A stretch of DNA of 64,000 bases from contig NZ_WBIS01000001.1 of NCBI RefSeq assembly GCF_009749465.1, forward strand, positions 992,001-1,056,000, written 5' to 3'. Of this stretch, positions 8,020 through 64,000 are shown in pieces. The position numbers and the translations under genes are program-made. How positions within the stretch are numbered: the stretch's first letter is position 1; every line of letters begins with the position of its first letter. This DNA comes from Agromyces terreus. GTDB taxonomy: Bacteria; Actinomycetota; Actinomycetes; Actinomycetales; Microbacteriaceae. The notes under the pieces were generated by a model. It was not told the DNA's origin. It did no database searches and saw nothing but the letters and a program-made list of their open reading frames with translations.

Positions 8020-9249
8020 CTATGCCCGCTCGAACACGGCCGCGAGCGCCTGGCCGCCGCCGATGCACATGGTCTCGAGGGCGAGGGTGCCGTCGAGGTC
8101 GGGCAGTTCGTGGGCGAGGGTCGCGAGCATGCGGATGCCGGTCGCGCCGATCGGGTGCCCGATCGAGATGCCGCTCCCCCGCGGGTTGAGGCGCGCGTCT
8201 TCGGCGTCGAGCCCCCAGTCGGCGAGGCACGCGAGCACCTGCACGGCAAACGCCTCGTTCAACTCGATCACGTCGAGATCGTCGAATCGGATGCCGGCGC
8301 GAGCGAGGGCGAGGTTCGCAGCGGGGACGGGGGCGACGCCGAAGCGCAGCGGGTCGTTGCCGGCGACGGCCCAGGAGATCAGGCGCAGCGCCGGACGCAG
8401 TCCCAGTTCAGCGGCACGCTCGGGCGTGGTGACGATGCACGCGGCTGCGGCATCGTTCTGTCCGCTCGCGTTTCCCGCGGTGACGGTCGCGTCGGGGTCG
8501 CCGCGACCGAGGATGGGGCGCAGGGCGCCGAGGGCGTCGAGCGTGGAGTCCGCGCGGGGATGCTCGTCACGGTCGACGGTCACCGAGCCGCGGCGGCCGG
8601 GCACCTCGACCGGCACGAGTTCCGCGTCGAACGCGCCGGCCTGCTGCGCGGCCACCGCCCGTTCGTGGGAGCGCAGCGCGAGGGCGTCCTGCGCGTCGCG
8701 CGAGATGCCGTACTCGGCGCGCAGCAGTTCGGCCGAGCCGACGTTGCCCTCCGGCGTCGGGAAGCGGCGCCCGCCGACGGTCTCCCGTCCGCGCGAGAGG
8801 GCGTCGTGCAGCATGAGGCCGGCACCCGCGAAGCCGCGGCGGCCCTCGACGCTGTAGAGCGGCGCGTTCGACATCGACTCCGCGCCGAGGGCGACGACCA
8901 CGTCGGCGACGCCGGTCTGCACCTCCATCGCGGCGTTCATCACGGCCTGGAGGCCCGATCCGCAGCGCCGGTCGAGCTGGTAGCCGGTCGTCGTCACGGG
9001 GAATCCGGCGTTCAGGGCGGCTACGCGTCCGAAGGCGGGCGCCTCCATGGTCGGGTACCCCTGCGCGGCGATCACGCCGTCGACGGCGGCCGGGTCGAGG
9101 CCGGTGCGCTCGAGCAGGGCGCCGAGCACGGTCTCGGCGAGCGTCAGCGCCGAGACGCTCGCGAGCGCGCCGCCCATGCGCCCGACGGGCGTGCGCAAGG
9201 GCGAGCAGATCACGACCTCGCGCAGTGCCGTCGCAGGTCGTGCGGTCAC
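8020..9249 (-). CDS. pcaF: 3-oxoadipyl-CoA thiolase
   Basis: A 409-residue thiolase catalysing the last step of the beta-ketoadipate pathway: 3-oxoadipyl-CoA plus CoA to succinyl-CoA and acetyl-CoA. The nucleophilic Cys lies in [13 protein letters not shown], the catalytic His in [19 protein letters not shown] and the second Cys in [16 protein letters not shown]. Family proteins use these three residues for Claisen cleavage. The GTG start overlaps the pcaJ stop by 4 bp. Thiolase alone could serve fatty acid oxidation, but placement behind pcaIJ makes PcaF the clear choice. Confidence 0.93.
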
Positions 9250-9887
9250 AGGTCGGGCCCGAGGGTGAACGGCGCGCCCGTGGCATCCGTGACCTGGTCG
9301 ATGCTGACGTCGGGTGCGAGTTCGATGAGCACGAGTCCGTCGTCGGTGACGTCGAACACGGCCAGGTCGGTGATGATGCGGTCGATGCACGCCCGCCCGG
9401 TCAGCGGGAGGGTGCACTGCGGCACGATCTTCGCCGACCCGTCTTTCGCGACGTGCTCCATGACCACGATCACGCGTTCGGCACCGTTCACGAGGTCCAT
9501 CGCCCCGCCCATGCCCTTGACCATCTTGCCCGGCACCGCCCAGTTCGCGATGTCGCCGCCGGCGCTGACCTGCATGGCGCCGAGCACCGCGGTCGTGATG
9601 CGGCCCCCGCGGATCATCCCGAAACTCGCCGCCGAGTCGAAGTACGCCGCCCCGGGCAGCACGGTCACGGTCTCCTTGCCGGCGTTGATGAGCTTCGGGT
9701 CGGCCTCGCCCTCCCACGGGTACGGGCCGACGCCGAGGATGCCGTTCTCGGAGTGCAGCACGACCTCGACGTCGTCGGGCAGGAAGTTCGGGATCAACGT
9801 CGGCAGGCCGATGCCGAGGTTCACGTACGAGCCGTCCTCGAGCTCACGGGCGGCGCGGGCCGCCATCTCGTCACGCGTGAGCGGCAT
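9246..9887 (-). CDS. pcaJ: 3-oxoadipate CoA-transferase subunit B
   Basis: A 213-residue beta subunit of a family I CoA transferase. It has the [13 protein letters not shown] opening and the catalytic glutamate in [11 protein letters not shown], which forms the glutamyl-CoA thioester in this family. With PcaI it transfers CoA from succinyl-CoA to 3-oxoadipate. Its ATG shares one base with the pcaI stop (TGATG), fitting stoichiometric translation of the two subunits. The family also includes acetoacetate:succinyl-CoA transferases; the pca context decides. Confidence 0.92.
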
Positions 9888-10702
9888 CAGCGGGCCCCCT
9901 CGTTCTCATTACGACCGGTGGCGGATGCCGCGGGCCGGGCCCTCACCGTCGTCTTCTCGATCGGCAGATCCGCCGACTGCTCCCGGCTGAGCACCACGAC
10001 CCGGTCGACGTAGATGCCCGGCAGGTGGATGTCATCGGGGCCGAGCACGCCCGGCTCGACGAGCTCGTCGACCTCGGCGATCGTAACCTTGCCCGCCATG
10101 CCCGCGAGCGGGTTGAAGTTGCGGGTCGACTTCTCGAACCGCAGGTTGCCGTGCCGGTCCCCGACGGCGGCGCGCACCAACCCGAAGTCCGTGCGGATCG
10201 CATGCTCGAGCACGTACTCGCGGTTCTTCCCGAACGTGCCGAACGGGCGCAACTCCTTCGGCTCGCTCGCCAACGCCACCGACCCGTCGGGCGCGTACCG
10301 CAACGGCATCCCGCCGTCGGAGACCACCGTGCCGGCACCCGCGGCCGTGAAGAACGCCGGAATGCCGACTCCGCCCGCGCGCAGCCGTTCGGCGAGCGTG
10401 CCCTGCGGGGTGAGCTCGACCTCGATCTCCCCGCCGAGGTACTGGCGGCCGAACTCCCGGTTCTCGCCGATGTAGCTCGCGATGACGCGGCGGATGCGGC
10501 CGCGTTCGAGCAGCTCGGCGAGGCCCCATCCGTCGACGCCGCAGTTGTTCGACACCACCTCGAGATCGGTCGCGCCCTGCTCGGTGAGCGCGCGGATCGT
10601 CCAGATCGGCACGCCCGACAGGCCGAACCCGCCCACCGCGAGCGACGCCCCGTCGAAGATGTCCGCGACCGCCTCGGCGGCGCTGCTGACGGTCTTATCC
10701 AT
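9887..10702 (-). CDS. pcaI: 3-oxoadipate CoA-transferase subunit A
   Basis: A 271-residue alpha subunit of the same CoA transferase. The CoA-binding signature of the family is visible in [20 protein letters not shown], followed by [20 protein letters not shown] and [17 protein letters not shown] charged C-terminal tail ([16 protein letters not shown]) is longer than usual. It overlaps the end of pcaL by 8 bp and abuts pcaJ, so the transferase is made from one polycistronic message with the rest of the pathway. Confidence 0.92.
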
Positions 10703-11966
10703 GATTCGTGCGGTCCTCTCGGTGCGGGTCGTGCGGTGCGGGGCGGGTCTCGGCGTCGGCGTCGGCGTCGGCCCCGTCGACCCCGTCGAGCGACGCGAAC
10801 TCGTCGCGCATCGCAGCGAGGGCGGCGTTGGCCGCGGGCAGCCCCGCGTAGAGCGAGGTGTGCAGGAGCACCTCGGCGATGCGCTCGCGGCTCAGGCCGT
10901 TGCCGAGGGCGGCGCGCACGTGCATGCGCAGCTCCCCCTCGTGGCCGCCGGTGACGAGGCTCGCGAGGGTGGCGATCGACCGCTCCTGCCGGGTGAGCTG
11001 GGGGCGGTCCCAGATCTCGGCCCACGCGTAGCGGGTGATGAAGTCCTGGAACGCGGCGGTCTCGGCCGTGATGCCCGCGTTCGCGCGGTCGACGTGGGCG
11101 TCGCCGAGCACGCTGCGGCGAACGGCCATGCCGCGGCCGTGCACGACGGATGCCGCGGCCCGCAGCTCGGCACCGTCGAGGTGCTCGGCGATGAGCTCGG
11201 CTGCGGCGGCGGGCTCTTCGAGCACGGCGAGGTGCGCGGCGCCGTCGAGCGAGACGTGGCGGCCGCCCGGCACGTCGTCGGCGAGATCCTGCATAGCGGC
11301 GGGCGTCGTGACCGCGTCGTGCTCGCCGCTGATCGCCAGCGTCGGCACGGTGAGCGCGCCCAGCGACGCCGTGCGGTCGAAGCCGCCGAGGGCCTCGGTG
11401 CAGCGTGCGTACGACTCGTCGTCGATGTCGACGAGGGTGCCGAGGCTGCGGGCACCGGGCCCGCCGGCGTCGCGCTCGAGGAATCCGGGCGCGAACCAGC
11501 GCAACGCACTGCCGGTGACGAGCGAGGCGGTTCCGCTCGCCCGCACCGCGGCGGCGCGTTCGGCCCAGCTCTCGGCCGTGCCGATGCGCGAGCCGCTGCA
11601 GCTCATGACGAGGCTGCGCACGCGGTCGGGGTGTGCGGCGGCGAGCTCGAGCGCGACGGTGCCGCCGAGCGAGACGCCCGCGATGTGGAACGCGCCGCCG
11701 CCCGCCTCATCGACGACCGCGAGCACCGCGTCGGCGAGGTCGGCGATCGTGAACGGCTCGGACGCCGCGGGGCTGGCGCCGTGCCCGGGCAGGTCGATGC
11801 GCAGGATGCGCAGGCCCGACGTTCGCGGGTCGGTGCGCAGCTCGCCGACGACGCCGTCCCACAGCGCCGACGTGGTGCCGAGGGAGGGCAGGAGCACGAG
11901 CAGCGGCTGGGCTGCGGCCGATGCGGTGCCCGGGGCGAAGGATCCGCGCAGGCGAGGAACGGTCAT
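10695..11966 (-). CDS. pcaL: PcaL: 3-oxoadipate enol-lactonase fused to 4-carboxymuconolactone decarboxylase
   Basis: A 423-residue two-domain enzyme. Residues 1 to about 265 are an alpha/beta hydrolase (PcaD) with the nucleophile elbow GVSLGG, a catalytic Asp near SGEHDAVT and the His in DGAAHLAVLEEP. Residues about 275-400 are a carboxymuconolactone decarboxylase (PcaC) with FITRYAWAEIWDRPQLTRQERSIATLAS and the conserved GGHEGELRMHVRAALGNGLSREEI-type helix (here SRERIAEVLLH). It decarboxylates gamma-carboxymuconolactone and hydrolyses the enol-lactone to 3-oxoadipate. The fusion is characteristic of actinobacteria such as Rhodococcus and Streptomyces. It overlaps pcaB by 4 bp; a charged tail follows the second domain. 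Confidence 0.93.
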   Translation of the reverse strand: MTVPRLRGSFAPGTASAAAQPLLVLLPSLGTTSALWDGVVGELRTDPRTSGLRILRIDLPGHGASPAASEPFTIADLADAVLAVVDEAGGGAFHIAGVSLGGTVALELAAAHPDRVRSLVMSCSGSRIGTAESWAERAAAVRASGTASLVTGSALRWFAPGFLERDAGGPGARSLGTLVDIDDESYARCTEALGGFDRTASLGALTVPTLAISGEHDAVTTPAAMQDLADDVPGGRHVSLDGAAHLAVLEEPAAAAELIAEHLDGAELRAAASVVHGRGMAVRRSVLGDAHVDRANAGITAETAAFQDFITRYAWAEIWDRPQLTRQERSIATLASLVTGGHEGELRMHVRAALGNGLSRERIAEVLLHTSLYAGLPAANAALAAMRDEFASLDGVDGADADADAETRPAPHDPHREDRTNHG

Positions 11967-13144
11967 GGGCGGGTGCCCCCTTCGGAGACGGCGGTGAATC
12001 GGGCGACGGCCCGGTCGATGATGCGATCGGATGTCGCGACGAGCAGGTCGCGGTGGCTCGGAGCGTTCGCGGCGTCGGCCGAGGCGAGGATCTGCGCCGC
12101 CCGGTCGCGATCGAACTCGAGGCCGTCGGCGAGTCGGGCGGCCGCGGCGGACGCGGAACGGGCCAGGCGCAGGAGTCGCCGCTGCGACGCCCACTCGGCG
12201 TGCCACCGGCCGGCCGAGCGCTCGTCGCCCGCGATCGCGGCGGATGCGACGACCTGCAGCAGCGCGGGCGATTCGACGGCCGCCGCGGTGATCGCGACCG
12301 CGTCGACGGGGTTGCGCTTGTGCGGCATCGCCGACGAGCCGCCGCCGCCCGCGAGGCGGACCTCGCCGAGTTCCTCGCGGGAGAGTAGGGTCACGTCGCC
12401 GGCGAGACGGCCGAGCACCGCCACGACCGACGCCGCGGCCGAGGCGACGGCGAGCACCGGCGTGCGCTCGACGTGCCACGAACGACCGGGATCGGTGAGC
12501 CCGAGGCGCACGGCGAGCCCCGCACGCACGTCGTCGGCCGCGCCGGGGCGGCCGGCTGCGACATCCGCCGCCGTTCCGGTGCCGACCGCGCCGCCGAACT
12601 GCACGGGGAAGGAGAGGGCGTCGACGGACTCGATCGCCGAGGAGACGCCGTCGAGCCAGCCCGCGGCGAGCACGCCGAGGGTGCTCGCCTCACCGTGGCG
12701 GGCGATCGTGCGGCCGATGCGCGGGCTCTGCCGCTCGGCGTCGGCGAGCGAGGCGAGGCGCGCGCCGGCCGCGATCAGTGATGCGCGGGTCGCTCGCAGC
12801 GCATCTCGGGCGACGAGCATGAGGGCCGTGTCGAGCACGTCCTGACTGGTCGCGCCCAGATGCAGCCGATCGGCAGGGAGCCCCGCGGCCTCGAGCTGCG
12901 CGCGCAGCGCCGGCACGAGCGCGACCACCGGCACGGCGTCGCGCGACACGCCCGCGGCGAGCGCCGCACGATCGAGCGCCGCGTCGTCGAGGGCGTCGGC
13001 CTGGCCGTCGAGGAACTCGTCGAGCTCGCTCCCCCAGACGCGGAGCAATGCACGTTCGACGTCGACCATTGCTTCGAGCACGGCGTCGTCGTCGGTGCCC
13101 GCCGTTTCCGTTGCTCCAGGATCGAGCAGTCCCCAGTCCGTCAT
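11963..13144 (-). CDS. pcaB: 3-carboxy-cis,cis-muconate cycloisomerase
   Basis: A 393-residue member of the fumarase/aspartase superfamily. The signature loop is intact as GGGGSSAMPHKRNPVDAV, and the second conserved region HLGATSQDVLDTALML is present. It converts 3-carboxy-cis,cis-muconate to gamma-carboxymuconolactone. ATG at 13144 lies 13 bp after the pcaG stop. At 393 residues it is somewhat shorter than typical PcaB proteins (about 450), as often seen in this group; the C-terminal domain appears trimmed, not broken. Confidence 0.92.
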   Translation of the reverse strand: MTDWGLLDPGATETAGTDDDAVLEAMVDVERALLRVWGSELDEFLDGQADALDDAALDRAALAAGVSRDAVPVVALVPALRAQLEAAGLPADRLHLGATSQDVLDTALMLVARDALRATRASLIAAGARLASLADAERQSPRIGRTIARHGEASTLGVLAAGWLDGVSSAIESVDALSFPVQFGGAVGTGTAADVAAGRPGAADDVRAGLAVRLGLTDPGRSWHVERTPVLAVASAAASVVAVLGRLAGDVTLLSREELGEVRLAGGGGSSAMPHKRNPVDAVAITAAAVESPALLQVVASAAIAGDERSAGRWHAEWASQRRLLRLARSASAAAARLADGLEFDRDRAAQILASADAANAPSHRDLLVATSDRIIDRAVARFTAVSEGGTRP

Positions 13145-13157
13145 CGACACGACTCCA

Positions 13158-13730
13158 TCACTGTTCGGTTCCGAAGTCGAGGAACACGGTCTCGCCCTCG
13201 CCCTGCAGACGGATGTCGAAGCGGTACGACGCCGGCCCGTCGGGCTCGGCCATGAGCGTTCCGCGACGGGCGGGATCGATGCGATCGAGGAGCGGGTCCG
13301 CGTCGTTCGCCGCGCCTTCGTCGCCGAAGTAGGCCCGTGTGAAGAGATGCTGCAGCACGCCGCGCGCGAAGATCGCCACGAGCAGGTAGGGCGCCGATCC
13401 GACGCGCATCGCTCCGGGCTTGATCGTCGTGAACGAGAATCGGCCGTCGCGGTCGACCGCGGCGCGGCCGAAGCCGGCGAAGCCGTGCTGATCGCGCTCG
13501 AACGCGCCGCGTTCGGCAGACGCCCGGCCCGCGGCATCCGCGCCCCAGATCTCGATGATCGCGTCGGGCACCGGGTCGCCGGCCCCGTCGTACACCGTGC
13601 CGTGCAGACGGATCGCGTCGGGCTGCCACGGCGCACGCACGTCGGATCCGCCGTCATAGGGCAGGGCGTACCCGAAGAACGGGCCGACCGTCTGCGACGG
13701 CGTCGGGCCGAGGGGTCGCTGCTCACGCAT
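13158..13730 (-). CDS. pcaG: Protocatechuate 3,4-dioxygenase alpha subunit
   Basis: A 190-residue intradiol dioxygenase alpha chain. It begins with the typical PTPSQTVGPFFGYALPY and carries the intradiol core IRLHGTVYDGAGDPVPDAIIEIWGAD and FSFTTIKPG. As in other alpha subunits the iron ligands are absent; SAPYLLVAIFARGVLQHLFTRAYF replaces the His-x-His segment. It pairs with PcaH to form the iron-containing alpha-beta unit that cleaves protocatechuate between its hydroxyls. The start overlaps the pcaH stop by 8 bp. Confidence 0.93.
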   Translation of the reverse strand: MREQRPLGPTPSQTVGPFFGYALPYDGGSDVRAPWQPDAIRLHGTVYDGAGDPVPDAIIEIWGADAAGRASAERGAFERDQHGFAGFGRAAVDRDGRFSFTTIKPGAMRVGSAPYLLVAIFARGVLQHLFTRAYFGDEGAANDADPLLDRIDPARRGTLMAEPDGPASYRFDIRLQGEGETVFLDFGTEQ

Positions 13731-14520
13731 GGTCGGCGTCCTCCGGTTCCATCCAGGTCGATCTCGGGCCGGTGAGCACGACGTCCCATCGGTAGCCGAT
13801 CGCCCACTCGGGCTCGCTCACGTCATGGTCGTAGGCGGCGACGAGTCGTTCGCGTGCCGCCGGATCGACGATGGACTGGTAGATCGGGTCGAGCGCGAAG
13901 AGCGGGTCGCCCGGGAAGTACATCTGCGTGATCAGTCGCTGCGTGAACGCCGATCCGAAGAACGAGAAGTGGATGTGCGCGGGGCGCCAGGCGTTGCGAT
14001 GGTTCTTCCACGGGTAGGCGCCCGGCTTGATCGTGGTCAGCCGGTACGAGCCGTCGTCGCCGGTGATGATGCGGCCGACGCCCGTGAAGTTCGGGTCGAG
14101 GGGCGCCGGGTGCTGGTCGCGCTTGTGCACGTAGCGGCCGGACGCGTTCGCCTGCCAGATCTCCACGAGCTGATTGCGCACCGGCCGGCCGTCGCCGTCG
14201 AGCACGCGGCCCGTGATGATGATGCGCTCGCCGAGCGGCTCGCCGCTGTGCTGGACGGTGAGGTCGGCCTCCTCCGGCGAGACGTCCGTGTGCCCGAAGG
14301 CCGGGGAGACGAGTTCGATCTCCTCGGGGTCGGCGCGCACGAGCTCATGCGTCGGATGCCGCAGCAGCGTCGATCGATACGGCGCGAAGTCGCGGCGCGG
14401 GTGTGCGGCGAGTGCACGGCCGGCGGATGCCGCGGCATCGCGTTCGAGCGCATGGCGGTCGGCGATCTCGTCGCTGATCGTGCCCTGCGACAGGTCTGGT
14501 CGGGAAGGTGTTCTCAGCAT
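13723..14520 (-). CDS. pcaH: Protocatechuate 3,4-dioxygenase beta subunit
   Basis: A 265-residue catalytic subunit. The four ferric iron ligands of intradiol dioxygenases are visible: Tyr in ASGRYVHKRDQH, Tyr in KPGAYPWKNH, and both His in WRPAHIHFSFFG. An N-terminal dioxygenase-N region (RRDFAPYRSTLLRHPTHELV) precedes them. It oxidises protocatechuate to 3-carboxy-cis,cis-muconate with O2. ATG at 14520 is 2 bp after the pobA stop, so the ring hydroxylase and ring cleavage enzymes are co-transcribed. Confidence 0.94.
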   Translation of the reverse strand: MLRTPSRPDLSQGTISDEIADRHALERDAAASAGRALAAHPRRDFAPYRSTLLRHPTHELVRADPEEIELVSPAFGHTDVSPEEADLTVQHSGEPLGERIIITGRVLDGDGRPVRNQLVEIWQANASGRYVHKRDQHPAPLDPNFTGVGRIITGDDGSYRLTTIKPGAYPWKNHRNAWRPAHIHFSFFGSAFTQRLITQMYFPGDPLFALDPIYQSIVDPAARERLVAAYDHDVSEPEWAIGYRWDVVLTGPRSTWMEPEDADHA

Positions 14521-14522
14521 GG

Positions 14523-15704
14523 TCACTCCGTCGTGAAGGGAAGGCCGGCGTACTGCTCGGCGAGGCTCTGACGCGCGGCGCGCGATCCGGTGACGTACTC
14601 GAGGCGGCCGACCTGGCTGCGGTAGGCGAACTCGCGAGCCGAGGCATCCGGTGCATCGTGCACGTGCAGGAGGTCGGTCATCCACTCGGAGAACTGCTGC
14701 ACCTTCCACTGGCGGGCCAGCGCTGCGGCGCTGTACCCGCTGAGACCGGACTCGTCGCCGTGCTGGAGGCCGGCGATGATCGCACGGCCCAACAGCACGA
14801 CGTCGGCGATGGCCGAGTTCAGCCCCTTCGCCCCGGTCGGCGGCACGATGTGCCCCGCGTCGCCGACGAGGAAGAGCCGTCCGTGCGACATCGTCGAGGC
14901 GACGAAGGAGCGCATCGGGGTGATCGACTTCTCGAGCACCTCGCCCTCCTGGAGGGTCCACCCGTCGACCCCGAGCCTGGTCTGGAGCGCGTCCCAGATG
15001 CGGGCGTCCGACCAGTCGTCGATCGACTCGTCGTGGCGAACCTGTACGTAGAGCCGCGACACCTCGGGCGAGCGCATCGAGTGCATCGCGAACCCGTCGG
15101 GGTGCAGCGCGTAGATGAGGTCATCGGTCGACGGCGGCACGTCGGCGAGGATGCCGAGCCACCCGAACGGGAACGAGCGCTCGAAGGCGCGGATGCCGGG
15201 AATCGCCGGGCGGCAGACCCCATGGAACCCGTCGGCGCCCACCACCACGTCGCCCGCGATCGTGGTCGTCGCCCCGCCATCCGTGAAGCTCACCGTGGGG
15301 TCGGATCCCTCGAGTCCGGTCGGCGTGACGTCGGAGACCTCGAAGCGGATGTCGCTGCCGAGCCGCTCGTGCTCGGCGAGCAGGTGGCGCACCAGCGCCT
15401 GCTGCCCGTAGATCGAGACGGTGCGCCCGACGAGCTCGACGAAGTCGAGGTGATGCCGCGCGCCCTCGAACTGGAGGTGGATGCCGTGGTGGGTCAGCCC
15501 GTGCTCCCGCAGATCGGCGTCGAGGCCGAGCTCGGCGAGCACGTCGACCGAGCTCTGTTCCAGCACCCCCGCACGGATGCGACCGAGCACGTACTCACGC
15601 GAGCGGGCCTCGAGGATCGTGAATCCGATGCCGGCACGGTGCAGGATGTGCCCGAGCAGGAGACCGGCGGGACCGGCTCCGATGATGACCGCCTGGGTTC
15701 GCAA
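14523..15704 (-). CDS. pobA: 4-hydroxybenzoate 3-monooxygenase
   Basis: A 393-residue flavoprotein hydroxylase that turns 4-hydroxybenzoate into protocatechuate using NAD(P)H and O2. FAD-binding motifs are IIGAGPAGLLLGHIL at the N-terminus, the DG motif VVGADGFHGVCR and the GD motif LFLVGDAGHIVPPTGAKGLN. The REYVLGRIRAGVLEQ segment matches PobA proteins. The start is probably TTG at 15704, with AGGA 7-10 nt upstream; no ATG or GTG in frame precedes the FAD motif. It heads the pca operon behind an IclR regulator. Confidence 0.94.
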   Translation of the reverse strand: MRTQAVIIGAGPAGLLLGHILHRAGIGFTILEARSREYVLGRIRAGVLEQSSVDVLAELGLDADLREHGLTHHGIHLQFEGARHHLDFVELVGRTVSIYGQQALVRHLLAEHERLGSDIRFEVSDVTPTGLEGSDPTVSFTDGGATTTIAGDVVVGADGFHGVCRPAIPGIRAFERSFPFGWLGILADVPPSTDDLIYALHPDGFAMHSMRSPEVSRLYVQVRHDESIDDWSDARIWDALQTRLGVDGWTLQEGEVLEKSITPMRSFVASTMSHGRLFLVGDAGHIVPPTGAKGLNSAIADVVLLGRAIIAGLQHGDESGLSGYSAAALARQWKVQQFSEWMTDLLHVHDAPDASAREFAYRSQVGRLEYVTGSRAARQSLAEQYAGLPFTTE

Positions 15705-15824: not shown

Positions 15825-16577
15825 TTACGGCCGGTAGCCGAGCGCCGCGGAGATGCCCCGGCCGGCGATGCGCACGCCGAGCGCGAACTGCGGCTCATCG
15901 CGTCGTTCGACGTGCGCGATGATCGAGACCGCGGCGACGACGTCGCCCGTGGCGTCGCGCACCGGGGCCGCGACCGAGAACGCGCCCTTGGTCAACGCCT
16001 CGACCGACATGGCGACGCCCGACGCGCGGATGCGGACCATTCGCTCGCGCAGTGCCGTCTCATCCACGATCGTTCCGGGGAGGAACCGGCGCGGGGCCGC
16101 GGCGATGACGTCTTCGAAGACGCCGGGCGGAGCGAACGCGAGCAGCGCCTGACCGACCCCGGTCGCGTGCAACGGCAGGCGTGAGCCGATGTCGGTGATC
16201 GACGGCACGGCGTTCACTCCCGACATCCGCTCGAGGTAGACGGCGCCGAGCCCCTCGCGAACGGCGAGGTGCACGTGCTCTCCCGTCGATTCGAAGAGGT
16301 CCTCGAGGTACGGTTTGGCGGCGATGCGGAGCCGTCGCGATGACGGTTGGCGAACGGCCAGCCGCCAGAGCTTGATGCCGACCCGATACCGCCCGTCGGA
16401 CGAACGGGTGATGCCGCCCCATTCGACCCACTCCCCGAGCAGACGGTGGGCCGTGGACAACGGCAGGCGGGCGCGCTCGGCGATCTCGCTCAGCGTCAGC
16501 TCGTCGCCGCGCTCGAACGCATCGGCGATCGCGAACAGCTTCTCGGCGACCCGGCGGTCGTCGTCACCCCTGGGCAT
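15825..16577 (-). CDS. IclR family regulator of the pob/pca genes
   Basis: A 250-residue IclR protein. The N-terminal winged helix reads AIADAFERGDELTLSEIAERARLPLSTAHRLLGEW, followed by the effector domain with GEHVHLAVREGLGAVYLERM, LPLHATGVGQALLAF and the conserved GVAMSVEALTKGAFSVAAPV. IclR relatives PcaR, PcaU and PobR activate protocatechuate or 4-hydroxybenzoate genes, and this gene lies just upstream of pobA on the same strand. ATG at 16577 starts directly before the conserved region; an in-frame GTG at 16652 would add 25 residues and neither has a good ribosome binding site. Confidence 0.85.
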   Translation of the reverse strand: MPRGDDDRRVAEKLFAIADAFERGDELTLSEIAERARLPLSTAHRLLGEWVEWGGITRSSDGRYRVGIKLWRLAVRQPSSRRLRIAAKPYLEDLFESTGEHVHLAVREGLGAVYLERMSGVNAVPSITDIGSRLPLHATGVGQALLAFAPPGVFEDVIAAAPRRFLPGTIVDETALRERMVRIRASGVAMSVEALTKGAFSVAAPVRDATGDVVAAVSIIAHVERRDEPQFALGVRIAGRGISAALGYRP

Positions 16578-16781: not shown

Positions 16782-17777
16782 TCACGCCGCCGTCTCATCG
16801 AGCGGAACCCGCCGTCGTGCGCGCGTCCGCTCCCGAGCAGGCGGGATCGCAGGACTGGACGGCATCGGTCCGACGGCTGCCGTGAGGGTGCCGACGCCCT
16901 CGACGGTCATCGACACCACGTCGCCCTCGGCGAGCGGCGACGGCGCGAGTTCCCCTGCGCGCCCCCACAGCTCGGCGAGGCATCCGCCGTTGCCGACCGT
17001 GCCGGAGCCGAGCACGTCGCCCGCGACGACCCGCGAGTCGCGGGAGGCGTACGCGACGAGTTCGGGGAACGGCCACCCCATGTTCGAGACGAGGTCTTCG
17101 CCGATCAGTTCGTCGTTGACGCGCACCTCGGCGTGCACGGCGAGGAAGCCGTCGTCGTCCAGAAACCGGTCGAGCTCGTCGGCCGTGACGATCCACGGGC
17201 CGAGGCTCGTGCCGAAGTCCTTGCCCTTGGCCGGCCCGAGGCGCACCTGCATCTCGCGGCCCTGGAGGTCGCGTGCCGACCAGTCGTTCATGACCGTGTA
17301 GCCGAAGATGTGGCGGGCGGCCTGCTCGGGCGTGAGGTTCGCGCCGTCCGATCCCTCGACGCCGCCGATGATCGCGGCGAGCTCGAGTTCGAAGTCGAGC
17401 CGTGCGGTCGCGGGCGGCGCGACGGGTTCGTCCGGCCCGAGGATCGTGTGCGGGTTGGTGAAGTAGAACGTGGGCGCCTCGTACCACTCGTCGGGCACGT
17501 GGCTCGCGCCGTCGATGCTCGCCGAGACGCCTTCGACATGCTCCTCGAACGCGACGAAGTCACGCACGGATGCCGGCGCGAGCGGCGCGACCAGCCGCAC
17601 GTCGGCGAGCGGTCGGCCCGCGGCATCCGCGGCTCGCTCGAACAGCGCACGCGCGGCGTCGAGTCCCTGCGCGAGCACGTCGGCGACACGGGCGCCGTCG
17701 GCGAAGGGCACGACGCGGTCGTCGATCACGAAGCCGTCGACGAGGTCGGCACCGTCGATCCAGCGTGCGATCCTCAT
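16782..17777 (-). CDS. Fumarylacetoacetate hydrolase (FAH) family protein
   Basis: A 331-residue FAH-fold enzyme. The metal-binding core shows FEEHVEGV, EWYEAPTFYFTNPHTILGP, then ELELAAIIGG and the conserved FGYTVMNDWSARDLQ and KGKDFGTSLGPWIV segments. FAH-family enzymes hydrolyse C-C bonds of 1,3-diketo acids or hydrate/decarboxylate dienoic products of ring cleavage. It is last in a six-gene minus-strand operon with an extradiol dioxygenase and overlaps the amidohydrolase gene by 4 bp. A role late in a meta-cleavage pathway is likely; exact substrate unknown. The C-terminal 25 residues are Arg-rich and probably unstructured. Confidence 0.82.
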   Translation of the reverse strand: MRIARWIDGADLVDGFVIDDRVVPFADGARVADVLAQGLDAARALFERAADAAGRPLADVRLVAPLAPASVRDFVAFEEHVEGVSASIDGASHVPDEWYEAPTFYFTNPHTILGPDEPVAPPATARLDFELELAAIIGGVEGSDGANLTPEQAARHIFGYTVMNDWSARDLQGREMQVRLGPAKGKDFGTSLGPWIVTADELDRFLDDDGFLAVHAEVRVNDELIGEDLVSNMGWPFPELVAYASRDSRVVAGDVLGSGTVGNGGCLAELWGRAGELAPSPLAEGDVVSMTVEGVGTLTAAVGPMPSSPAIPPARERTRARRRVPLDETAA

Positions 17778-27742: not shown

Positions 27743-28143
27743 GCGAGGATCGTGACCTTCCGCTCGGAGTGGAACACCGACGGCTGGAATTCCGCCGGAA
27801 TGTAGGGGGCGTGGATCGCGATGTCCACCGCGAGATCGTGCACGCCGGCGGGGAGCCCACCGGGATGGGGCACCGTGATCGTCGCGAGCTCGTCGAGCTG
27901 CCAGCGGACCTCGGTCACCGAGGAACGCAGCTCTTGGATCGAGTAGTCGCGGCCTTGCAACGACCAGCGCGGGACCTCGCGGGTCCACGAGAGGTCGCCG
28001 ACGGCGACATCGACGCCGTCGATGAGGCTGCCCCATACACCGCGGTAGTTGGGCATGCGCAGCAGGAATTGAAACCCGATCACCTCCCCGTCGACGGTGA
28101 CGTTGTGCACGCCGTGGTTCTGGATGAGTTCACGCTCGAGCAT
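27739..28143 (-). CDS. C-glycoside deglycosidase beta subunit (DUF6379 family)
   Basis: A 134-residue protein matching the small beta subunit of bacterial C-glycoside deglycosidases. Landmarks are the opening IQNHGVHNVTVDGEVIGFQFLLRMPNYRG and the C-terminal HDLAVDIAIHAPYIP. The subunit forms a beta-sandwich that packs on the TIM-barrel partner and completes its active site in the characterised complexes. It overlaps the GMC oxidase gene by 14 bp and the barrel gene by 4 bp, so the three are made together. This small, specific family is the strongest single marker for C-glycoside use in this region. Confidence 0.82.
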   Translation of the reverse strand: MLERELIQNHGVHNVTVDGEVIGFQFLLRMPNYRGVWGSLIDGVDVAVGDLSWTREVPRWSLQGRDYSIQELRSSVTEVRWQLDELATITVPHPGGLPAGVHDLAVDIAIHAPYIPAEFQPSVFHSERKVTILA

Positions 28144-31452: not shown

Positions 31453-31501
31453 TCGTGAGATCATGGCCGTCCACCGTGACCCGACCTCGGAGAAGAACCC
31501 G

Positions 31502-35385: not shown

Positions 35386-35390
35386 CGCAC

Positions 35391-35428: not shown

Positions 35429-35439
35429 ATCGTAGGCTC

Positions 35440-37636: not shown

Positions 37637-37683
37637 CCTATTCCGCATCCGCATCGATTCACCCCACGAAAGGAAACAACCGC

Positions 37684-53950: not shown

Positions 53951-53986
53951 CCCCGCATGCGGGGATGCGCGCACCGATGGTTCGGA

Positions 53987-55300
53987 CTAGTTGCCGATGT
54001 CGGCCTGCACGGCCTTCATGAAGTCCTCGGGGCTCATCGCACCCGTGACCAGCTGCGACGCGTTCGTCTGGCTGGTCGTCGCGGCCTTCGCGTTGAAGAG
54101 CGCCTCGAACCAGAGCACGCTCTGCGTGGTGGCGTCGATCTGCGTCTGCACCTCCTGCGTGAGGGGCGGCAGATCCTCGACGGGCGTGTTCACCTTGAAG
54201 CCGGTGATGACGCCCTGGTTCTGCAGCGAGCTCGAACCGAAGTTGTCGGCGAAGCAGCCGAGCCACGACGCGACGTCGTCCGAGTAGGTCGACTTCGACA
54301 GCGCGAGCGGCACGCCCACGTTGGCGGCGAGCTGGTCGGCCGAACCTGCGCCGCCCTCGACCGTCGGGAACGGGATGAAGCCGACGTTCTCGGCACCGAT
54401 CTGGTTCTGCGCCGGGTCGTTGAAGTTCGCGAGCGCCCAGCTGCCCATGTAGAACATGCCGGCCTGTCCGGTGAGGAACTGGTTCATCGCGGTCATGTAG
54501 TCGATCGACGTGACCGAGGGGCCGAAGTAGCCCTTGGCGCCGAGGTCGGCGACGGCTTCAGCGGCCTTCACGTACTCGGGATCGGTCAGCTTCGCCTCGC
54601 CGTCGGCCACCTTCTGGAGGGCGTCGGGCCCGAGGTCGCGGAAGATGTAGTTGCCGACGAGGCGCGTGAGCGGCCAGCCGTCCTGACCGTCGGCCGAGAA
54701 CGGGATGACCCCGGCCGCGTTGAGCTTCTCGGCTGCGGCGACGAGCTCGTCCCACGTGGTCGGAACTTCGATGCCGTTCTCGGCGAAGAGCTGCTTGTTG
54801 TACCAGATGCCCTCGACGTTGAACTCGGTGGGCAGCACGTACTGCTCGCCGTCGTACAGGGCGTCGATCGTCGACTGTGCGGCGGGGATGATCGCGTCGG
54901 ACTTGTCGAGGTCGGCCAGCGCCTGTTCGACGTCGACGAGCTTGCCGCCCGTGTTGAGGTCCTTCGCGACCTGCGGCGTGTTGCCGCTCGCGAAGAGCAC
55001 CGGCAGGGCGTCCTGGCCGGCGAGCAGCTGGAGCTGCTGGTCGTAGCTCGCCTGCGGCTGGGTGGTGATGTCGAGCGGCAGGGCCTCGTTCTCGGCGGAG
55101 CACTCACCCGTGGACAGCGCGGTGAGCGTGTCCTGGATGGAGGTGTTCTCGGCGAACGAGAGATAGCTGAACTTGTCGGGTGCCGTCGTGCCGCCCTCGC
55201 TGCTGCCGCCGGCCGAGCAGCCGGTGAGTGCGAACGCGGTGACGCCGATCGCGGCGATGAGCGGAACGAGCTTCGTCGCCCGCTGACGTGCTGTGGTCAC
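53987..55300 (-). CDS. Extracellular sugar-binding lipoprotein (CUT1 family)
   Basis: A 437-residue binding protein. The signal peptide ends at FALTGC (Cys28). The mature protein has family landmarks DLNTGGKLVDVEQAL, VEGIWYNKQLFAENGIEVPTTWDEL and GQAGMFYMGSWALANF. GTG at 55300 has AAGGAGG upstream. It is the first gene of the glycoside operon, facing the LacI gene over a 180-bp region with two matching operators. Oligosaccharides or flavonoid glycosides containing rhamnose are probable ligands given the GH78 and GH3 genes behind it. Confidence 0.9.
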   Translation of the reverse strand: MTTARQRATKLVPLIAAIGVTAFALTGCSAGGSSEGGTTAPDKFSYLSFAENTSIQDTLTALSTGECSAENEALPLDITTQPQASYDQQLQLLAGQDALPVLFASGNTPQVAKDLNTGGKLVDVEQALADLDKSDAIIPAAQSTIDALYDGEQYVLPTEFNVEGIWYNKQLFAENGIEVPTTWDELVAAAEKLNAAGVIPFSADGQDGWPLTRLVGNYIFRDLGPDALQKVADGEAKLTDPEYVKAAEAVADLGAKGYFGPSVTSIDYMTAMNQFLTGQAGMFYMGSWALANFNDPAQNQIGAENVGFIPFPTVEGGAGSADQLAANVGVPLALSKSTYSDDVASWLGCFADNFGSSSLQNQGVITGFKVNTPVEDLPPLTQEVQTQIDATTQSVLWFEALFNAKAATTSQTNASQLVTGAMSPEDFMKAVQADIGN

Positions 55301-55480: not shown

Positions 55481-56518
55481 ATGTCAGACGCACTGCCGCG
55501 CGAGGAGCCCACTTCGGCGGGCATCAAAGACGTCGCCGCCCTCGCCGGGGTCTCGATCGCGACCGTCTCGAACGCGCTCAACCATCGCGAGCGCGTGGCG
55601 GCACCCACCCTCGACCGCATCGACCGAGCCATCGGCATGCTCGGCTACATCCCGAACGGCGCCGCACGCTCGCTCGCCGCCGGCCGCACCCGGTCGTTCG
55701 GGCTCATCCTCTCCGACCTCGGCAACTCGCTCTTCGTCGACATCGCACGCGGCGCCGAGCGCGCCGCCGACGAACGCGGGCTCAGCGTCGTGCTCGCCAA
55801 CAGCGACGGCAAGCTCGAGCGCGAAGACCGCTACGTGGAGCTCTTCGCCGAGACCCGCGTGCGCGGCGTGCTGCTCACCCTCAACGATGCTTCTCACTTC
55901 CGCGCGATCGTCGGGCGCCATGCGCACGGCCAGCCGCTCGTCATGCTGAACTTCCACGACGACAGCGGCCGCTACTGCACCGCGTCGATCGACAACGAGG
56001 CCGGCGGGCACCTCGCGACGACGCACCTGCTCGAGACCGGACGACGACGCATCGTGTTCGTCGGCGGCCCCGACACCCTCCAGCCCGTCGCCGACCGCCG
56101 CCGCGGGTTCCGCCGTGCGCTCGCCTCGGCCGGCCTTGACCCCATCGACGAGATCGCGCCGACCTGGGTCAATCGAGCCGACGGCTGGCAGGTCGGCCGG
56201 CGGCTCGCCGAACGCGTGCAGCGTGGCGAGATCGACGGCGTCGTCGCGGCATCCGACCTGCTCGCCGCCGGCATCGTTCAGGCGATGTCCGAGTTCGGCG
56301 CGATCTCGGTGCCCGACTCGGTCGGAGTGATCGGCTACGACAACAACCAGGCCGCCTGGGATGCGCCGATCCCGATCTCCACGATCAGCCAGCCGGGCGA
56401 CGAGCTGGGCTTCATCGGCGCCCAGCTGCTCATCGACGAGGTCGACGAGCCCGACCACGAGCACCGGGCGATCCGCCTCGCTCCCGAGCTCATCGTGCGC
56501 CGCAGCACCGAACGATAG
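55481..56518 (+). CDS. LacI family regulator of the glycoside operon
   Basis: A 345-residue LacI protein. The HTH reads IKDVAALAGVSIATVSNALNH, followed by the hinge helix region GAARSLAAGRTRSFGLILSDLGNSLF and a periplasmic-binding-protein-like effector domain to the end (VIGYDNNQAAWDAPIPISTISQPG). It lies divergent to the sugar ABC/GH78/GH3 operon and two near-identical operators lie between. A mono- or disaccharide released from the glycoside is the likely inducer. Confidence 0.92.
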   Translation: MSDALPREEPTSAGIKDVAALAGVSIATVSNALNHRERVAAPTLDRIDRAIGMLGYIPNGAARSLAAGRTRSFGLILSDLGNSLFVDIARGAERAADERGLSVVLANSDGKLEREDRYVELFAETRVRGVLLTLNDASHFRAIVGRHAHGQPLVMLNFHDDSGRYCTASIDNEAGGHLATTHLLETGRRRIVFVGGPDTLQPVADRRRGFRRALASAGLDPIDEIAPTWVNRADGWQVGRRLAERVQRGEIDGVVAASDLLAAGIVQAMSEFGAISVPDSVGVIGYDNNQAAWDAPIPISTISQPGDELGFIGAQLLIDEVDEPDHEHRAIRLAPELIVRRSTER

Positions 56519-56559
56519 CCTGACCCCGACCACCGATCCGACCGGAGGTACCGTCAACG

Positions 56560-57525
56560 ATGACGAACGAACCCGCAGTACCCGACGAGGCGCCGGCCGA
56601 GACCGGTCGCACGCCACTGCAGCTGAGCTCGGTCGATTTGAATCTGGTCGTGCCGCTGCAGACACTGCTCGAAGAGCGCAGTGTGAGCCGTGCCGCCGAA
56701 CGCCTGTTCATGAGCCAACCCGCCCTTTCGGCGGCGCTCTCCCGGCTCCGGCGACACTTCAACGACGAGTTGCTCGTGCGCTCGGGCAACCGGTACGACC
56801 TCAGCCCGCTCGGCGTCGAACTGCTCGAAGCCGTCACCGTCGCGAGCAGCTCCCTCAGCCGCGTGTTCGGCGCCCAGGCCGAGTTCCGCCCAGAGGAGAG
56901 CAGCCGCGAGTTCCGCCTGGTCTGCTCCGACTACGTCGCCGCGGTGTACGGCGCATCGCTGGCACGCGAGCTCTCGCGCACCGCACCGGGCGTCATGCTG
57001 CGCATGGAGCACGTGCAGGACGCGATCGTCGACAGCGCGCCCGACTCGTTGCGCGACATCGACGGGCTCATCCTCCCCCACGGCTACCTCGAACACGTGG
57101 AGTTCATCGACCTGTTCGCCGATCGCTGGCAGTGCCTCGTCGCGGCCGAGACCGCCGACGCGCCGCTCACGGTCGACGAGCTCGGGGCCCGGCCGTGGGC
57201 GACGACCTACAGCGGTCGCACCGCCATCGTCGCCGCCACCCGCGAGCTGCACGTGCTCGGCGTCTACCCGCAGACGCAGGTGACGACGCGCAGCTTCCTC
57301 ACGCTGCCCGACATGGTGGCCGGCACCGACCGGGTGGCCTTCGTGCCCGAATCGCTGGTCGACCGGTTCGAGCTGCGCGGCGACGTCGCGGCCGTCGAAT
57401 GCCCGATCCCGATTCCGGGCATCAAGCAGGCGTTCTGGTGGAGCCCGTCGCACGAATCAGATGCCGGCCATCGCTGGCTGCGCGGCAAGGTCGCCGAGGT
57501 CGCAGCAGGAATCAGCGGCGCGTGA
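56560..57525 (+). CDS. LysR family regulator
   Basis: A 321-residue LysR-type protein with a 20-residue extension before the HTH (TLLEERSVSRAAERLFMSQPALSAALSRLRRHFNDELL). The effector domain shows the same organisation as that of the LysR protein at 32949 (for example DGLILPHGYLEHVEFIDLFADRW against DGLLIPHGFTPGLHHEDLWHDRW), so the two are paralogues. It follows lacI by 41 bp on the same strand. Target unknown; aromatic inducers are common in this NodD/LinR-like branch. Confidence 0.88.
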   Translation: MTNEPAVPDEAPAETGRTPLQLSSVDLNLVVPLQTLLEERSVSRAAERLFMSQPALSAALSRLRRHFNDELLVRSGNRYDLSPLGVELLEAVTVASSSLSRVFGAQAEFRPEESSREFRLVCSDYVAAVYGASLARELSRTAPGVMLRMEHVQDAIVDSAPDSLRDIDGLILPHGYLEHVEFIDLFADRWQCLVAAETADAPLTVDELGARPWATTYSGRTAIVAATRELHVLGVYPQTQVTTRSFLTLPDMVAGTDRVAFVPESLVDRFELRGDVAAVECPIPIPGIKQAFWWSPSHESDAGHRWLRGKVAEVAAGISGA

Positions 57526-62991: not shown

Positions 62992-64000
62992 GCGTAGTCC
63001 TCCGGGCTCCACTCGTCGAGCCACTCGATGGTCGGGATGTCGCCGTCGAAGCGGATCGGCAGCCACACGTAGTCGGCGATCGCCGTGTTCTCGCCGCTGG
63101 CGAGCGACATGACGGCCGCGAGGTTCTCGGCGCCGGGCGGGCGAGGGGCGCCCTGCATGCGTGCGGCGATCGCGTCGAACACGTTCGGCAGGTCGTCGGG
63201 GAGCTCGGGCAGCCAGCGGTCGGCGAGCGCGATGTAGAGGTCCTGCTTGCCGGGGTGCTTGAAGACCGAGCTGATCTGCGACCGGTACGACGTGCGCGTC
63301 TCGTCGCCGGGGTGGGCGTCGCCGAGCACGGTCCACGGCCCGTGCATCCCGTCGGCGCTCGCGAACTCCGACGGGTTGGGGAAGTACCCGGTCGTGCTCG
63401 AGGTCACGAGGTAATGCCGGCCGTCGCGCGTGAAGTGCGCGGGGGCCTCGCGGTTGAACGGCGGCCCGGAGTGGTGGAAGTGCACGCTGTGCTGCCCCGA
63501 GACATCCGTGTAGTCGTCGGTGAGCTCGGCGACGACGACGTCGGTGTGCACCTTCTCGAAGACGTAGTACGCGGTGCCGTCGGCCGGGTCGACCGTGAGG
63601 TCGAAGTCGCCGGCGTCCATGCCGAGGGGGCGCAGGCCCGTGCGCACGATCTCGTAGGGGCCGAGCAGGTCGTCGGCGACGAGCACGGTGGAGGCCTGGG
63701 TCGCCTGCTCGTCTTCGCCCATGATCTTCAGCCAGCAGACGTACTTGCCCGTCGCTTCGTTGAAGAGGATGTGCGGGCGGTCCATCTTCTGCGCCGGATG
63801 CAGCGGCGACGCCGGGTCGTCGAGCACGGGCGGGATGATCAGCCCGCGGTCGTCCCAGTTCACGAGGTCGGTCGAGGTGTACGCGCGCACGCCCCAGTGC
63901 CAGTTGCCGCTGCCGGGGGTCGTGTGCTCCTTGTTCTCGCCGTACCAGACGAAGGTGCCGTCGGGCAGAGTGAAGATCGAGCCGCCGTGCGCCTGGATGC
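62988..64000 (-). CDS. Glycoside hydrolase family 43 enzyme, 5' end beyond the window
   Basis: At least 336 residues of a GH43-type five-bladed propeller; the frame is open to the edge. The near-N-terminal IQAHGGSIFTLPDGTFVWYG is the family start, missing perhaps 10-20 residues. Other landmarks are DRPHILFNEATGKYVCWLK, DAGDFDLTVDPADGTAYYVFE with probable catalytic Asp, and NREAPAHFTRDGRHYLVTS with the Glu. The pattern is closest to the exo-beta-1,3-galactanase/arabinofuranosidase side of GH43. It would trim side chains from plant polysaccharide or glycoside. Confidence 0.85.
   Translation of the reverse strand, partial: IQAHGGSIFTLPDGTFVWYGENKEHTTPGSGNWHWGVRAYTSTDLVNWDDRGLIIPPVLDDPASPLHPAQKMDRPHILFNEATGKYVCWLKIMGEDEQATQASTVLVADDLLGPYEIVRTGLRPLGMDAGDFDLTVDPADGTAYYVFEKVHTDVVVAELTDDYTDVSGQHSVHFHHSGPPFNREAPAHFTRDGRHYLVTSSTTGYFPNPSEFASADGMHGPWTVLGDAHPGDETRTSYRSQISSVFKHPGKQDLYIALADRWLPELPDDLPNVFDAIAARMQGAPRPPGAENLAAVMSLASGENTAIADYVWLPIRFDGDIPTIEWLDEWSPEDYA

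What the first reader, a model, noticed from the sequence alone, without database searches (positions are those of the whole stretch)
8020..64000. A 56-kb island that appears to take glycosylated plant phenolics from sugar removal to central metabolism
Side by side are GH78 x2, GH3, GH43, a C-glycoside deglycosidase set, a P450/reductase pair with an aromatic-acid-type importer, formaldehyde fixation (hxlBA), pobA and a complete pca set, and a second ring-cleavage module. Each part is known; the combination in one block would allow complete use of O- and C-glycosylated methoxyphenolics. Seen: the genes and order. Inferred: that they form one programme.
Basis: partly seen in the sequence, partly recalled or inferred. 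Interest (0 to 1): 0.8.

Follow-up and report, generated by a model that had tools for sequence, protein, structure and literature searches.

The report
Flavone-eating gene island in Agromyces
A soil bacterium carries, side by side, genes that should strip the sugars from plant flavonoids, take the flavonoid rings apart and feed the pieces to central metabolism; comparison with relatives shows that these pieces tend to travel together, and suggests an untested chemical route for the ring breakdown.

Summary
The genes are there, but the island should be redrawn and renamed. The block shared with its nearest relative (G025) is 8,021-59,376; the last 4.6 kb (second GH78, GH43) lie outside it. The genus is Agromyces. 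The "second ring-cleavage module" is the heart: FAH2-CYC-FMO8-AH2-FAH1 plus an extradiol dioxygenase (EDO). In content it resembles the known flavonoid A-ring pathways (fde, ifc). CYP199A (PbdA type) co-occurs with EDO in 7 of 7 Agromyces and 8 of 10 genomes of the order (own genome included in both); the C-glycoside oxidase does so in 9 of 10 Agromyces. The C-glycoside genes are an 8.2-kb block missing from G025; of 60 Agromyces only this genome has CarA and CYP199 orthologues together. In 92 related loci FAH2+AH2 (76) and a DHPON-hydrolase-like enzyme (14) never occur together, which suggests a two-step/one-step exchange. I propose flavone -> aryl-pyrone -> aroylacetoacetate -> aryl acid + acetoacetate; the acid feeds CYP199, PobA and Pca. 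No enzyme was assayed. Seven or more local regulators argue against a single regulon. New variant of a known kind.

The parts
8020..9177 (-). thiolase of the pca operon (pcaF position); could also split acetoacetyl-CoA
   Evidence: PF00108/PF02803; NF004853 acetyl-CoA C-acetyltransferase above cut-off, TIGR02430 pcaF far below
9246..10702 (-). pcaJ and pcaI, 3-oxoacid CoA-transferase subunits
   Evidence: PF01144; TIGR02428 and TIGR02429 above cut-off
10695..11966 (-). pcaDC fusion
   Evidence: NF051488 469 bits, cut-off 390
11963..14340 (-). pcaB, pcaG, pcaH
   Evidence: TIGR02426 best for pcaB but below cut-off; PF00775 x2
14523..15704 (-). pobA, 4-hydroxybenzoate 3-monooxygenase
   Evidence: NF006091 513 bits, cut-off 351; TIGR02360 below cut-off
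15825..16577 (-). IclR1 regulator
   Evidence: PF01614/PF09339
16782..17777 (-). FAH1, fumarylacetoacetate-hydrolase family; proposed aroylacetoacetate hydrolase
   Evidence: PF01557; best NCBIfam TIGR01266 fumarylacetoacetase, partial and below cut-off; best PDB match 6iym, a decarboxylase-type FAH protein
17774..18838 (-). AH2, ACMSD-like decarboxylase; proposed pyrone-carboxylate decarboxylase
   Evidence: PF04909; best PDB match ACMSD 4ign E 6.6e-49
18835..19968 (-). FMO8, group A flavin monooxygenase; proposed flavonoid 8-hydroxylase
   Evidence: PF01494; PRK06847 subfamily above cut-off; 35-37% to FMOs of the Burkholderia anthina, Paraburkholderia and K84 clusters
20033..21028 (-). CYC, PF04199 hydrolase family; proposed pyrone lactonase
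   Evidence: only PDB match 5ibz, uncharacterised
21025..22059 (-). FAH2, FAH family nearer the acylpyruvase/isomerase branch; proposed acylpyruvate hydrolase
   Evidence: best NCBIfam 2,4-didehydro-3-deoxy-rhamnonate hydrolase, below cut-off; best PDB match 3qdf
22173..23192 (-). EDO, extradiol dioxygenase of the catechol 2,3-dioxygenase kind
   Evidence: PF00903; TIGR03211 best but below cut-off; H152, H216, E267 invariant in 15 orthologues (their role as metal ligands is recalled)
23308..24543 (-). MFS transporter of the module
   Evidence: PF07690; linked to the module in relatives
24698..28143 (-). C-glycoside deglycosidase set: AP_endonuc_2 protein, GFO/IDH/MocA oxidoreductase, CGD alpha, CGD beta (PF19906)
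   Evidence: CGD alpha (26852-27742) 347 bits to 8qrz, 225 bits to 7bvs/7dre/7exb (EuCGD), 74 bits to 7dnm (AgCGD2)
28130..29728 (-). CarA-type FAD C-glycoside 3-oxidase
   Evidence: 692 bits to 7dve (MtCarA), 685 bits to 7qf8 (PsG3Ox)
30085..32860 (+). GPH sugar symporter and ROK protein
32949..33866 (+). LysR1, regulator that accompanies the ring module
   Evidence: near the module in most Agromyces islands read
34165..36039 (+). FMO2 (second flavin monooxygenase) and TetR
   Evidence: FMO2 35-38% to second FMOs of the Burkholderia and Deinococcus clusters
36075..36905 (-). LuxR-type regulator, travels with hxlBA
37007..38307 (+). hxlB and hxlA, formaldehyde fixation
   Evidence: TIGR03127 232.7 (cut-off 160), TIGR03128 242 (cut-off 200)
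38369..39139 (-). SDR dehydrogenase often linked to the ring module
39219..44023 (-). livKMHFG-type ABC importer
44020..45231 (-). CYP199A P450 (PbdA-like); proposed 4-methoxybenzoate O-demethylase
   Evidence: 628 bits to 9g9q (PbdA); carboxylate-binding Arg, Ser, Ser kept as R85, S88, S238 by my mapping
45272..46258 (-). reductase with C-terminal 2Fe-2S domain next to the P450
   Evidence: PF00111 and PF00175
46358..47230 (-). IclR2 regulator
47234..52125 (-). GH3 and GH78a (alpha-L-rhamnosidase family)
52122..55300 (-). sugar/glycoside ABC importer (two permeases, binding protein)
55481..57525 (+). LacI and LysR2 regulators of the glycosidase cassette
   Evidence: same cassette without the ring module in G011

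Best explanation
A catabolic island for glycosylated flavonoids, most likely flavones. Shown, as gene content and linkage only: glycoside import, rhamnosidase and GH3 glycosidase, C-glycoside oxidase and CGD, ring module, CYP199A with reductase, hxlBA, PobA and Pca. Inferred: FMO8 hydroxylates C8 of the A ring; EDO cuts C8-C8a, turning the C ring into a lactone (pyrone) with an acylpyruvate side chain; FAH2 removes pyruvate; AH2 decarboxylates the pyrone-carboxylate; CYC opens the 6-aryl-4-hydroxy-2-pyrone to 5-aryl-3,5-dioxopentanoate (aroylacetoacetate, the aryl analogue of fumarylacetoacetate); FAH1 splits this into acetoacetate and the B-ring benzoate. Carbon balance 15 = 7 + 4 + 1 + 3. 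4-Hydroxybenzoate goes to PobA and Pca; 4-methoxybenzoate is first demethylated by CYP199A, and the formaldehyde goes to HxlA/HxlB. In some relatives a DHPON-hydrolase-like enzyme replaces FAH2+AH2: one cut at C4a-C5 would give the same pyrone plus oxaloacetate.
For: Linkage across shuffled islands and across the order. FAH2+AH2 in 76, alpha/beta hydrolase in 14, both in 0, neither in 2 of 92 loci, with at least 7 exchanges on the FMO8 tree, 4 forced by starred branches. The model of that hydrolase (mean pLDDT 75) has DHPON hydrolase 2jbw as first PDB match (22% identity); rank 2 is an acylaminoacyl peptidase, ranks 7-15 polyketide-shortening hydrolases. AH2 is nearest ACMSD, a decarboxylase. 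CoA-transferase genes lie near the module without pcaB/G/H hits in the stretches read of G050, G021, G204, G255 and G228, as an acetoacetate product predicts. The published ifc intermediate X3, 2-hydroxy-5-(4-hydroxyphenyl)-4H-pyran-4-one, is the isoflavone counterpart of the proposed pyrone (PMC11069340, section 16). PbdA, the nearest solved P450, demethylates p-methoxybenzoate (PMC11530827, passages).
Against: No enzyme or growth test. No named FdeE/FdeC/IfcA/IfcB sequence was at hand, so orthology was not tested; FMO8 is only 35-37% to the nearest proteobacterial cluster FMOs compared, and EDO has only a partial 25% match to the Burkholderia VOC protein. The cupin IfcD that acts on X3 has no counterpart among the 50 window genes scanned. 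FAH1's best PDB match is a decarboxylase-type FAH protein, not fumarylacetoacetase. Module 2 occurs without CYP199, CarA or GH78a orthologues in G019, G035 and G076. The exchange trait is clustered on the tree (0 of 500 shuffles as low), so lineage explains part of the exclusion. L125 and L135 have neither solution.
Confidence: 0.6

Rival explanations
1. The ring module attacks another fused phenolic (hydroxycoumarin, chromone, xanthone or anthraquinone aglycone), and the B-ring link is fortuitous.
For: Group A FMO plus extradiol enzyme plus FAH hydrolase also occurs in other aromatic routes (general knowledge); C-glycoside oxidases also serve mangiferin and carminic acid (PMC10646112, PMC8563793, passages).
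Against: Linkage to CYP199 in 7 of 7 Agromyces and 8 of 10 order-wide genomes asks for a para-methoxybenzoate, which a coumarin, xanthone or anthraquinone would not be expected to give.
Confidence: 0.15
2. Isoflavones or flavanones, not flavones, are the main substrates.
For: IfcA is isoflavone-specific and FdeE belongs to naringenin degradation, with wide flavonoid scope (PMC11069340, PMC11303751, passages).
Against: An isoflavone carries the aryl group on C3, so the same cuts would not give a benzoate; a flavanone lacks the C2=C3 bond needed for a beta-diketone (inference from structure).
Confidence: 0.15
3. A catabolic hot spot: unrelated cassettes collected without a shared substrate.
For: Cassettes occur alone in relatives; most have their own regulator; G025 lacks the C-glycoside block.
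Against: The same cassettes are together in five further species, in four of them in another order, and in part in other families; a flanking gene (4,653-5,627) does not follow: found in 3 of 14 other island genomes, each time on another contig.
Confidence: 0.1

Closest known systems
fde (Herbaspirillum seropedicae) and ifc (Variovorax) flavonoid A-ring pathways
   Same: Group A FMO, extradiol-type dioxygenase, pyrone-type intermediate (published for ifc, proposed here), onward route to protocatechuate (proposed for fde)
   Different: Other phylum; FAH2+AH2 in the window where ifc has an alpha/beta hydrolase gene; no cupin found; linked to C-glycosidase, CYP199 and formaldehyde genes
CarABC / PurABC C-glycoside deglycosylation
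   Same: FAD 3-oxidase (692 bits to MtCarA 7dve) plus CGD alpha and beta genes
   Different: Here in an 8.2-kb block within the flavonoid island; substrate untested
PbdAB (CYP199A) p-methoxybenzoate demethylase, Rhodococcus jostii RHA1
   Same: P450 628 bits to PbdA, carboxylate-binding residues kept, adjacent reductase gene
   Different: Leu175 where PbdA has Ala174 (my mapping); linked to the ring module and hxlBA
Riboflavin/lumichrome catabolism (lum)
   Same: Extradiol cut to a pyrone, then pyruvate and acetoacetate; a putative FAH gene
   Different: Other starting rings and genes; compared from outline and passages only (PMC12746152)

Membership tests
fde/ifc flavonoid A-ring cluster | Group A flavin monooxygenase starting the pathway | tested here: met
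   Family met; 35-37% to B. anthina/Paraburkholderia/K84 cluster FMOs; orthology to named FdeE/IfcA not tested
fde/ifc flavonoid A-ring cluster | Dioxygenase FdeC/IfcB | tested here: inconclusive
   An extradiol enzyme is present, but it has only a partial 25% match to the B. anthina VOC protein, itself assigned to ifc/fde by gene content alone
fde/ifc flavonoid A-ring cluster | Cupin IfcD acting on the pyranone | tested here: not met
   No cupin among the 50 window genes from 7,316 to 63,998 scanned with Pfam
fde/ifc flavonoid A-ring cluster | 8-hydroxylase activity | not testable with these tools
   Needs an enzyme assay
CarABC/PurABC C-glycoside system | GMC-type C-glycoside 3-oxidase | tested here: met
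   7dve (MtCarA) 692 bits, 7qf8 (PsG3Ox) 685 bits
CarABC/PurABC C-glycoside system | CGD alpha and beta subunits | tested here: met
   Alpha: 8qrz 347 bits, EuCGD 225 bits, AgCGD2 74 bits; beta: PF19906 E 3.9e-35; activity not assayed
CYP199A/PbdAB | CYP199A P450 with carboxylate-binding Arg/Ser/Ser | tested here: met
CYP199A/PbdAB | Cognate flavin/FeS reductase | tested here: inconclusive
   Adjacent gene with PF00111 and PF00175; not compared with PbdB, pairing not assayed
RuMP formaldehyde fixation | HxlA and HxlB | tested here: met
   TIGR03128 and TIGR03127 above cut-off
beta-ketoadipate pathway | pcaHGB, pcaDC, pcaIJ, pcaF and pobA | tested here: met
   pcaB (TIGR02426), pcaF (TIGR02430) and pobA (TIGR02360) score below those equivalog cut-offs
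DHPON hydrolase family (relatives only, not in the window) | Fold and Ser-Asp-His triad of the alpha/beta hydrolase | tested here: met
   2jbw first, 22% identity; S235, D326, H361 invariant in 13 sequences (triad roles recalled)

The most novel reading that the evidence does not exclude
Actinobacteria have their own complete flavone pathway. The A ring goes first, through 6-aryl-4-hydroxy-2-pyrone and aroylacetoacetate, ending with a fumarylacetoacetase-like enzyme that releases the intact B ring as a benzoate plus acetoacetate. Two interchangeable solutions exist for the middle step: FAH2+AH2 (pyruvate + CO2) or one DHPON-hydrolase-like enzyme (oxaloacetate). CYP199A demethylases then serve 4'-methoxyflavones such as acacetin in nature.
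Probability: 0.45. Interest if true: 0.8.

Novelty: new variant of a known kind. Interest (0 to 1): 0.66.

Why it matters
Flavonoids are among the commonest plant phenolics, and in the papers read here the bacterial genes for A-ring cleavage come from Proteobacteria. The EDO search found 205 genome stretches encoding a relative, and the 80 kept are mostly Microbacteriaceae, so an actinobacterial route could be widespread. The FAH2+AH2 / single-hydrolase exchange makes the unknown middle of the pathway directly testable, and the linkage offers a natural substrate for CYP199A enzymes, which the papers seen here treat in the context of lignin.

Tried and rejected
One shared regulon: not assumed, because seven regulators by Pfam (IclR x2, LysR x2, TetR, LuxR, LacI) and perhaps ROK sit beside separate cassettes; no operator search was made. 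Membership in ifc: not claimed, since the cupin is missing. Riboflavin catabolism: different genes. Reading 8,020-64,000 as one unit: rejected by the G025 comparison. Tracing the island by a left-flank gene: it does not follow. The tRNA scan and the Rfam scan at gathering threshold were empty. Named FdeE/FdeC references could not be obtained; the one genome-contig scan went to EDO, which kept 80 of 205 stretches. Structure prediction of CYC or FAH1 was considered and left out.

Limits of the counts: presence depends on identity thresholds that I set (36-60% by gene, over 45% coverage) and on 21-kb or 60-kb stretches, so a gene farther away is missed. The 92 loci are 73 of the 80 named loci, 15 Agromyces stretches, the window, L060, L061 and L145; only loci with identical EDO DNA were removed (G082 = L095, G021 = L139), so several species of one genus remain. 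Fisher tests treat genomes as independent. The 7 of 7 and 8 of 10 counts include the window's genome and G021. In the order-wide set G228 and G296 share contig lengths with L143 and L140 (Demequina), so they are not new beside those. The tree is of the quick kind and warns that long branches L060 and L145 meet.

Claims that something is not in print rest on searches in a library of openly licensed papers only.
Full report
WHAT IS THERE. A codon-based gene call gave 59 genes in the window. Fifty of them, from 7,316 on, were scanned with Pfam; 25 different window proteins and two of a relative were scanned with NCBIfam.

WHERE IT IS. The window is contig 12, 992,001-1,056,000, of a 3.7-Mb genome.

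EXTENT. Nucleotide comparison with the nearest island, G025, gives homology from 8,021 to 59,376, with two gaps: 24,687-32,890 and 33,867-36,074. The first holds the whole C-glycoside set, the symporter and the ROK gene; in G025 its flanks lie 20 bp apart. GH78b and GH43 lie outside the shared block.

LINKAGE IN THE GENUS. In 60 Agromyces genomes, own genome included, EDO orthologues (68% or more) were in 18, the CarA-type oxidase (64% or more) in 10, CYP199 (75% or more) in 7, hxlA (78% or more) in 8, pobA (73% or more) in 19, GH78a (70% or more) in 8. All 7 CYP199 genomes have EDO; 9 of 10 CarA genomes do (the tenth is an 810-contig draft); 7 of 8 GH78a genomes are the CYP199 genomes; 14 of 19 pobA genomes have EDO; 5 of 8 hxlA genomes have CYP199. 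Only the window's genome has both CarA and CYP199. G025, G060, G066, G027 and G075 carry the cassettes within about 40 kb, G025 in the window's order and the other four shuffled (G066 without hxlBA), G021 in part. A second set (G068, G063, G010, G002, G009; G080 and G029 without the pca operon in the stretch) combines the module with two CarA-type sets. A left-flank gene does not follow the island.

LINKAGE BEYOND. In 248 genomes of the order CYP199 was in 10, EDO in 21, both in 8; two of the 8 are Agromyces. In 7 of the 8 both lie on one contig within 23 kb; in G204 they are on different contigs. G255, without an EDO orthologue, still has the alpha/beta hydrolase, FAH1, FMO8, CYC, LysR1, P450, reductase and GH78a within 20 kb; G211 shows none of the ring module in its stretch. 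EDO also lies near CarA/CGD genes on plasmids of Arthrobacter sp. StoSoilB13 and, directly adjacent, Deinococcus aetherius.

CASSETTES ALONE. GH3-GH78a-importer-LacI-LysR2 in G011 (L149); pca-pobA-IclR in G033 and G017, and its pcaDC-to-IclR part in G031, where the stretch is cut; hxlBA-LuxR in G062 and G005, and in G076 on another contig than its ring module. The island is thus a modular assembly.

THE RING MODULE. In 78 loci with FAH2 and AH2 the commonest order was EDO-FAH2-CYC-FMO8-AH2-FAH1: 52 with EDO on the same strand, 16 with it opposed. Of 92 non-duplicate loci with at least two of FMO8, CYC and FAH1, 76 had FAH2 and AH2, 14 had an alpha/beta hydrolase, none both, 2 neither. In one search four more loci (G121, G172, G204, G255) have the hydrolase without FAH2/AH2 hits; the G121 stretch is cut after CYC. 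The hydrolases of L060 and G021 are 47-70% identical to those in the Rhizobium K84, Burkholderia anthina and Deinococcus clusters. On an FMO8 tree of 93 rows (78 pair, 13 hydrolase, 2 unassigned) the trait changes at least 7 times, 4 forced by starred branches; shuffled labels need 12.4 on average, so it is clustered too (quick method). The structure model of the L141 hydrolase (mean pLDDT 75.2) is nearest DHPON hydrolase 2jbw; an acylaminoacyl peptidase is second, polyketide-shortening hydrolases rank 7-15.

PROPOSED CHEMISTRY (inference). 8-hydroxylation and C8-C8a cleavage make the C ring a pyrone lactone. With a 5-hydroxyl the side chain is an acylpyruvate. FAH2 plus AH2 would remove it as pyruvate and CO2; the hydrolase would remove it in one cut as oxaloacetate, as DHPON hydrolase frees a dihydroxypyridine from its acyl chain (recalled). 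Both leave the same 6-aryl-4-hydroxy-2-pyrone. CYC opens it and FAH1 splits the aroylacetoacetate. The published isoflavone intermediate X3 is a 2-hydroxy-5-aryl-4-pyranone, and loss of the ifc alpha/beta hydrolase gene did not affect degradation of daidzein, which has no 5-hydroxyl; the latter is consistent but weak. In ifc the cupin IfcD then acts on X3; here no cupin was found, so the endgame differs. CoA-transferase genes near the module without pcaB/G/H hits in the stretches read (G050, G021, G204, G255, G228) fit acetoacetate; six further loci with such genes were not checked for pcaB/G/H (one of them, L143, is G228).

P450. The nearest solved protein is PbdA (9g9q, 628 bits). Its carboxylate-binding Arg84, Ser87 and Ser237 are R85, S88 and S238 here; Ala174 is Leu175 (my mapping). 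PbdA acts on p-methoxybenzoate, veratrate and isovanillate (PMC11530827, passages); Leu might disfavour a 3-methoxy group (inference).

AGAINST. No assay, no expression data. Sequence orthology to FdeE/FdeC/IfcA/IfcB was not tested. EDO is not clearly of the same subfamily as the Burkholderia VOC protein, and Nonomuraea has a different VOC protein (23%) in that operon. FAH1 is not closest to fumarylacetoacetase among solved structures. The module occurs without CYP199, CarA or GH78a orthologues in G019, G035 and G076.

LITERATURE. PMC11069340: passages and sections 16 and 17. PMC12724307, PMC10646112, PMC8563793, PMC11303751, PMC11530827: passages. PMC12746152: outline and passages. All others: search listings only. 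Searches showed no description of such a cluster in Actinomycetota in their listings; the library is limited.

VERDICT. Real, conserved and functionally coherent; narrower in substrate, looser in architecture and differently bounded than first stated. New variant of a known kind, interest 0.66.

Noticed in passing
window:18835-23192: After G025, the window's EDO is closest to Microbacterium homologues (91% to M. aerolatum), and the window's and G025's FMO8 sit among Microbacterium rows on the tree, apart from the other Agromyces, while CYP199 is 85-94% to five of six other Agromyces orthologues; the ring module may have been exchanged on its own.
   Followed up: partly
window:34165-35385: FMO2 is 35-38% identical to second flavin monooxygenases inside the Burkholderia anthina and Deinococcus aetherius clusters; possibly another flavonoid hydroxylase.
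   Followed up: partly
L145:17119-24730: A Nonomuraea record has FAH2-CYC-FMO8-AH2-FAH1-SDR, but a different VOC protein (23%) in place of EDO.
   Followed up: partly
L125 and L135: Module loci with neither FAH2+AH2 nor the alpha/beta hydrolase; a third solution or genes elsewhere.
   Followed up: partly
L095, L105, L118, L130: EDO near a CarA-type oxidase without the rest of the ring module in the 21-kb locus.
   Followed up: no
window:47234-49486: The GH3 protein's best NCBIfam model is exo-alpha-(1->6)-L-arabinopyranosidase, below cut-off; it may not be a simple beta-glucosidase.
   Followed up: no
window:57716-59368: Protein with binding-protein and von Willebrand A domains at the right end of the block shared with G025; role unknown.
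   Followed up: no
L147:1-20000: Beyond the window's right end a GH3 relative, GFO/IDH-like stretches and a LacI-like gene follow, so GH78b/GH43 may belong to a separate saccharide locus.
   Followed up: no
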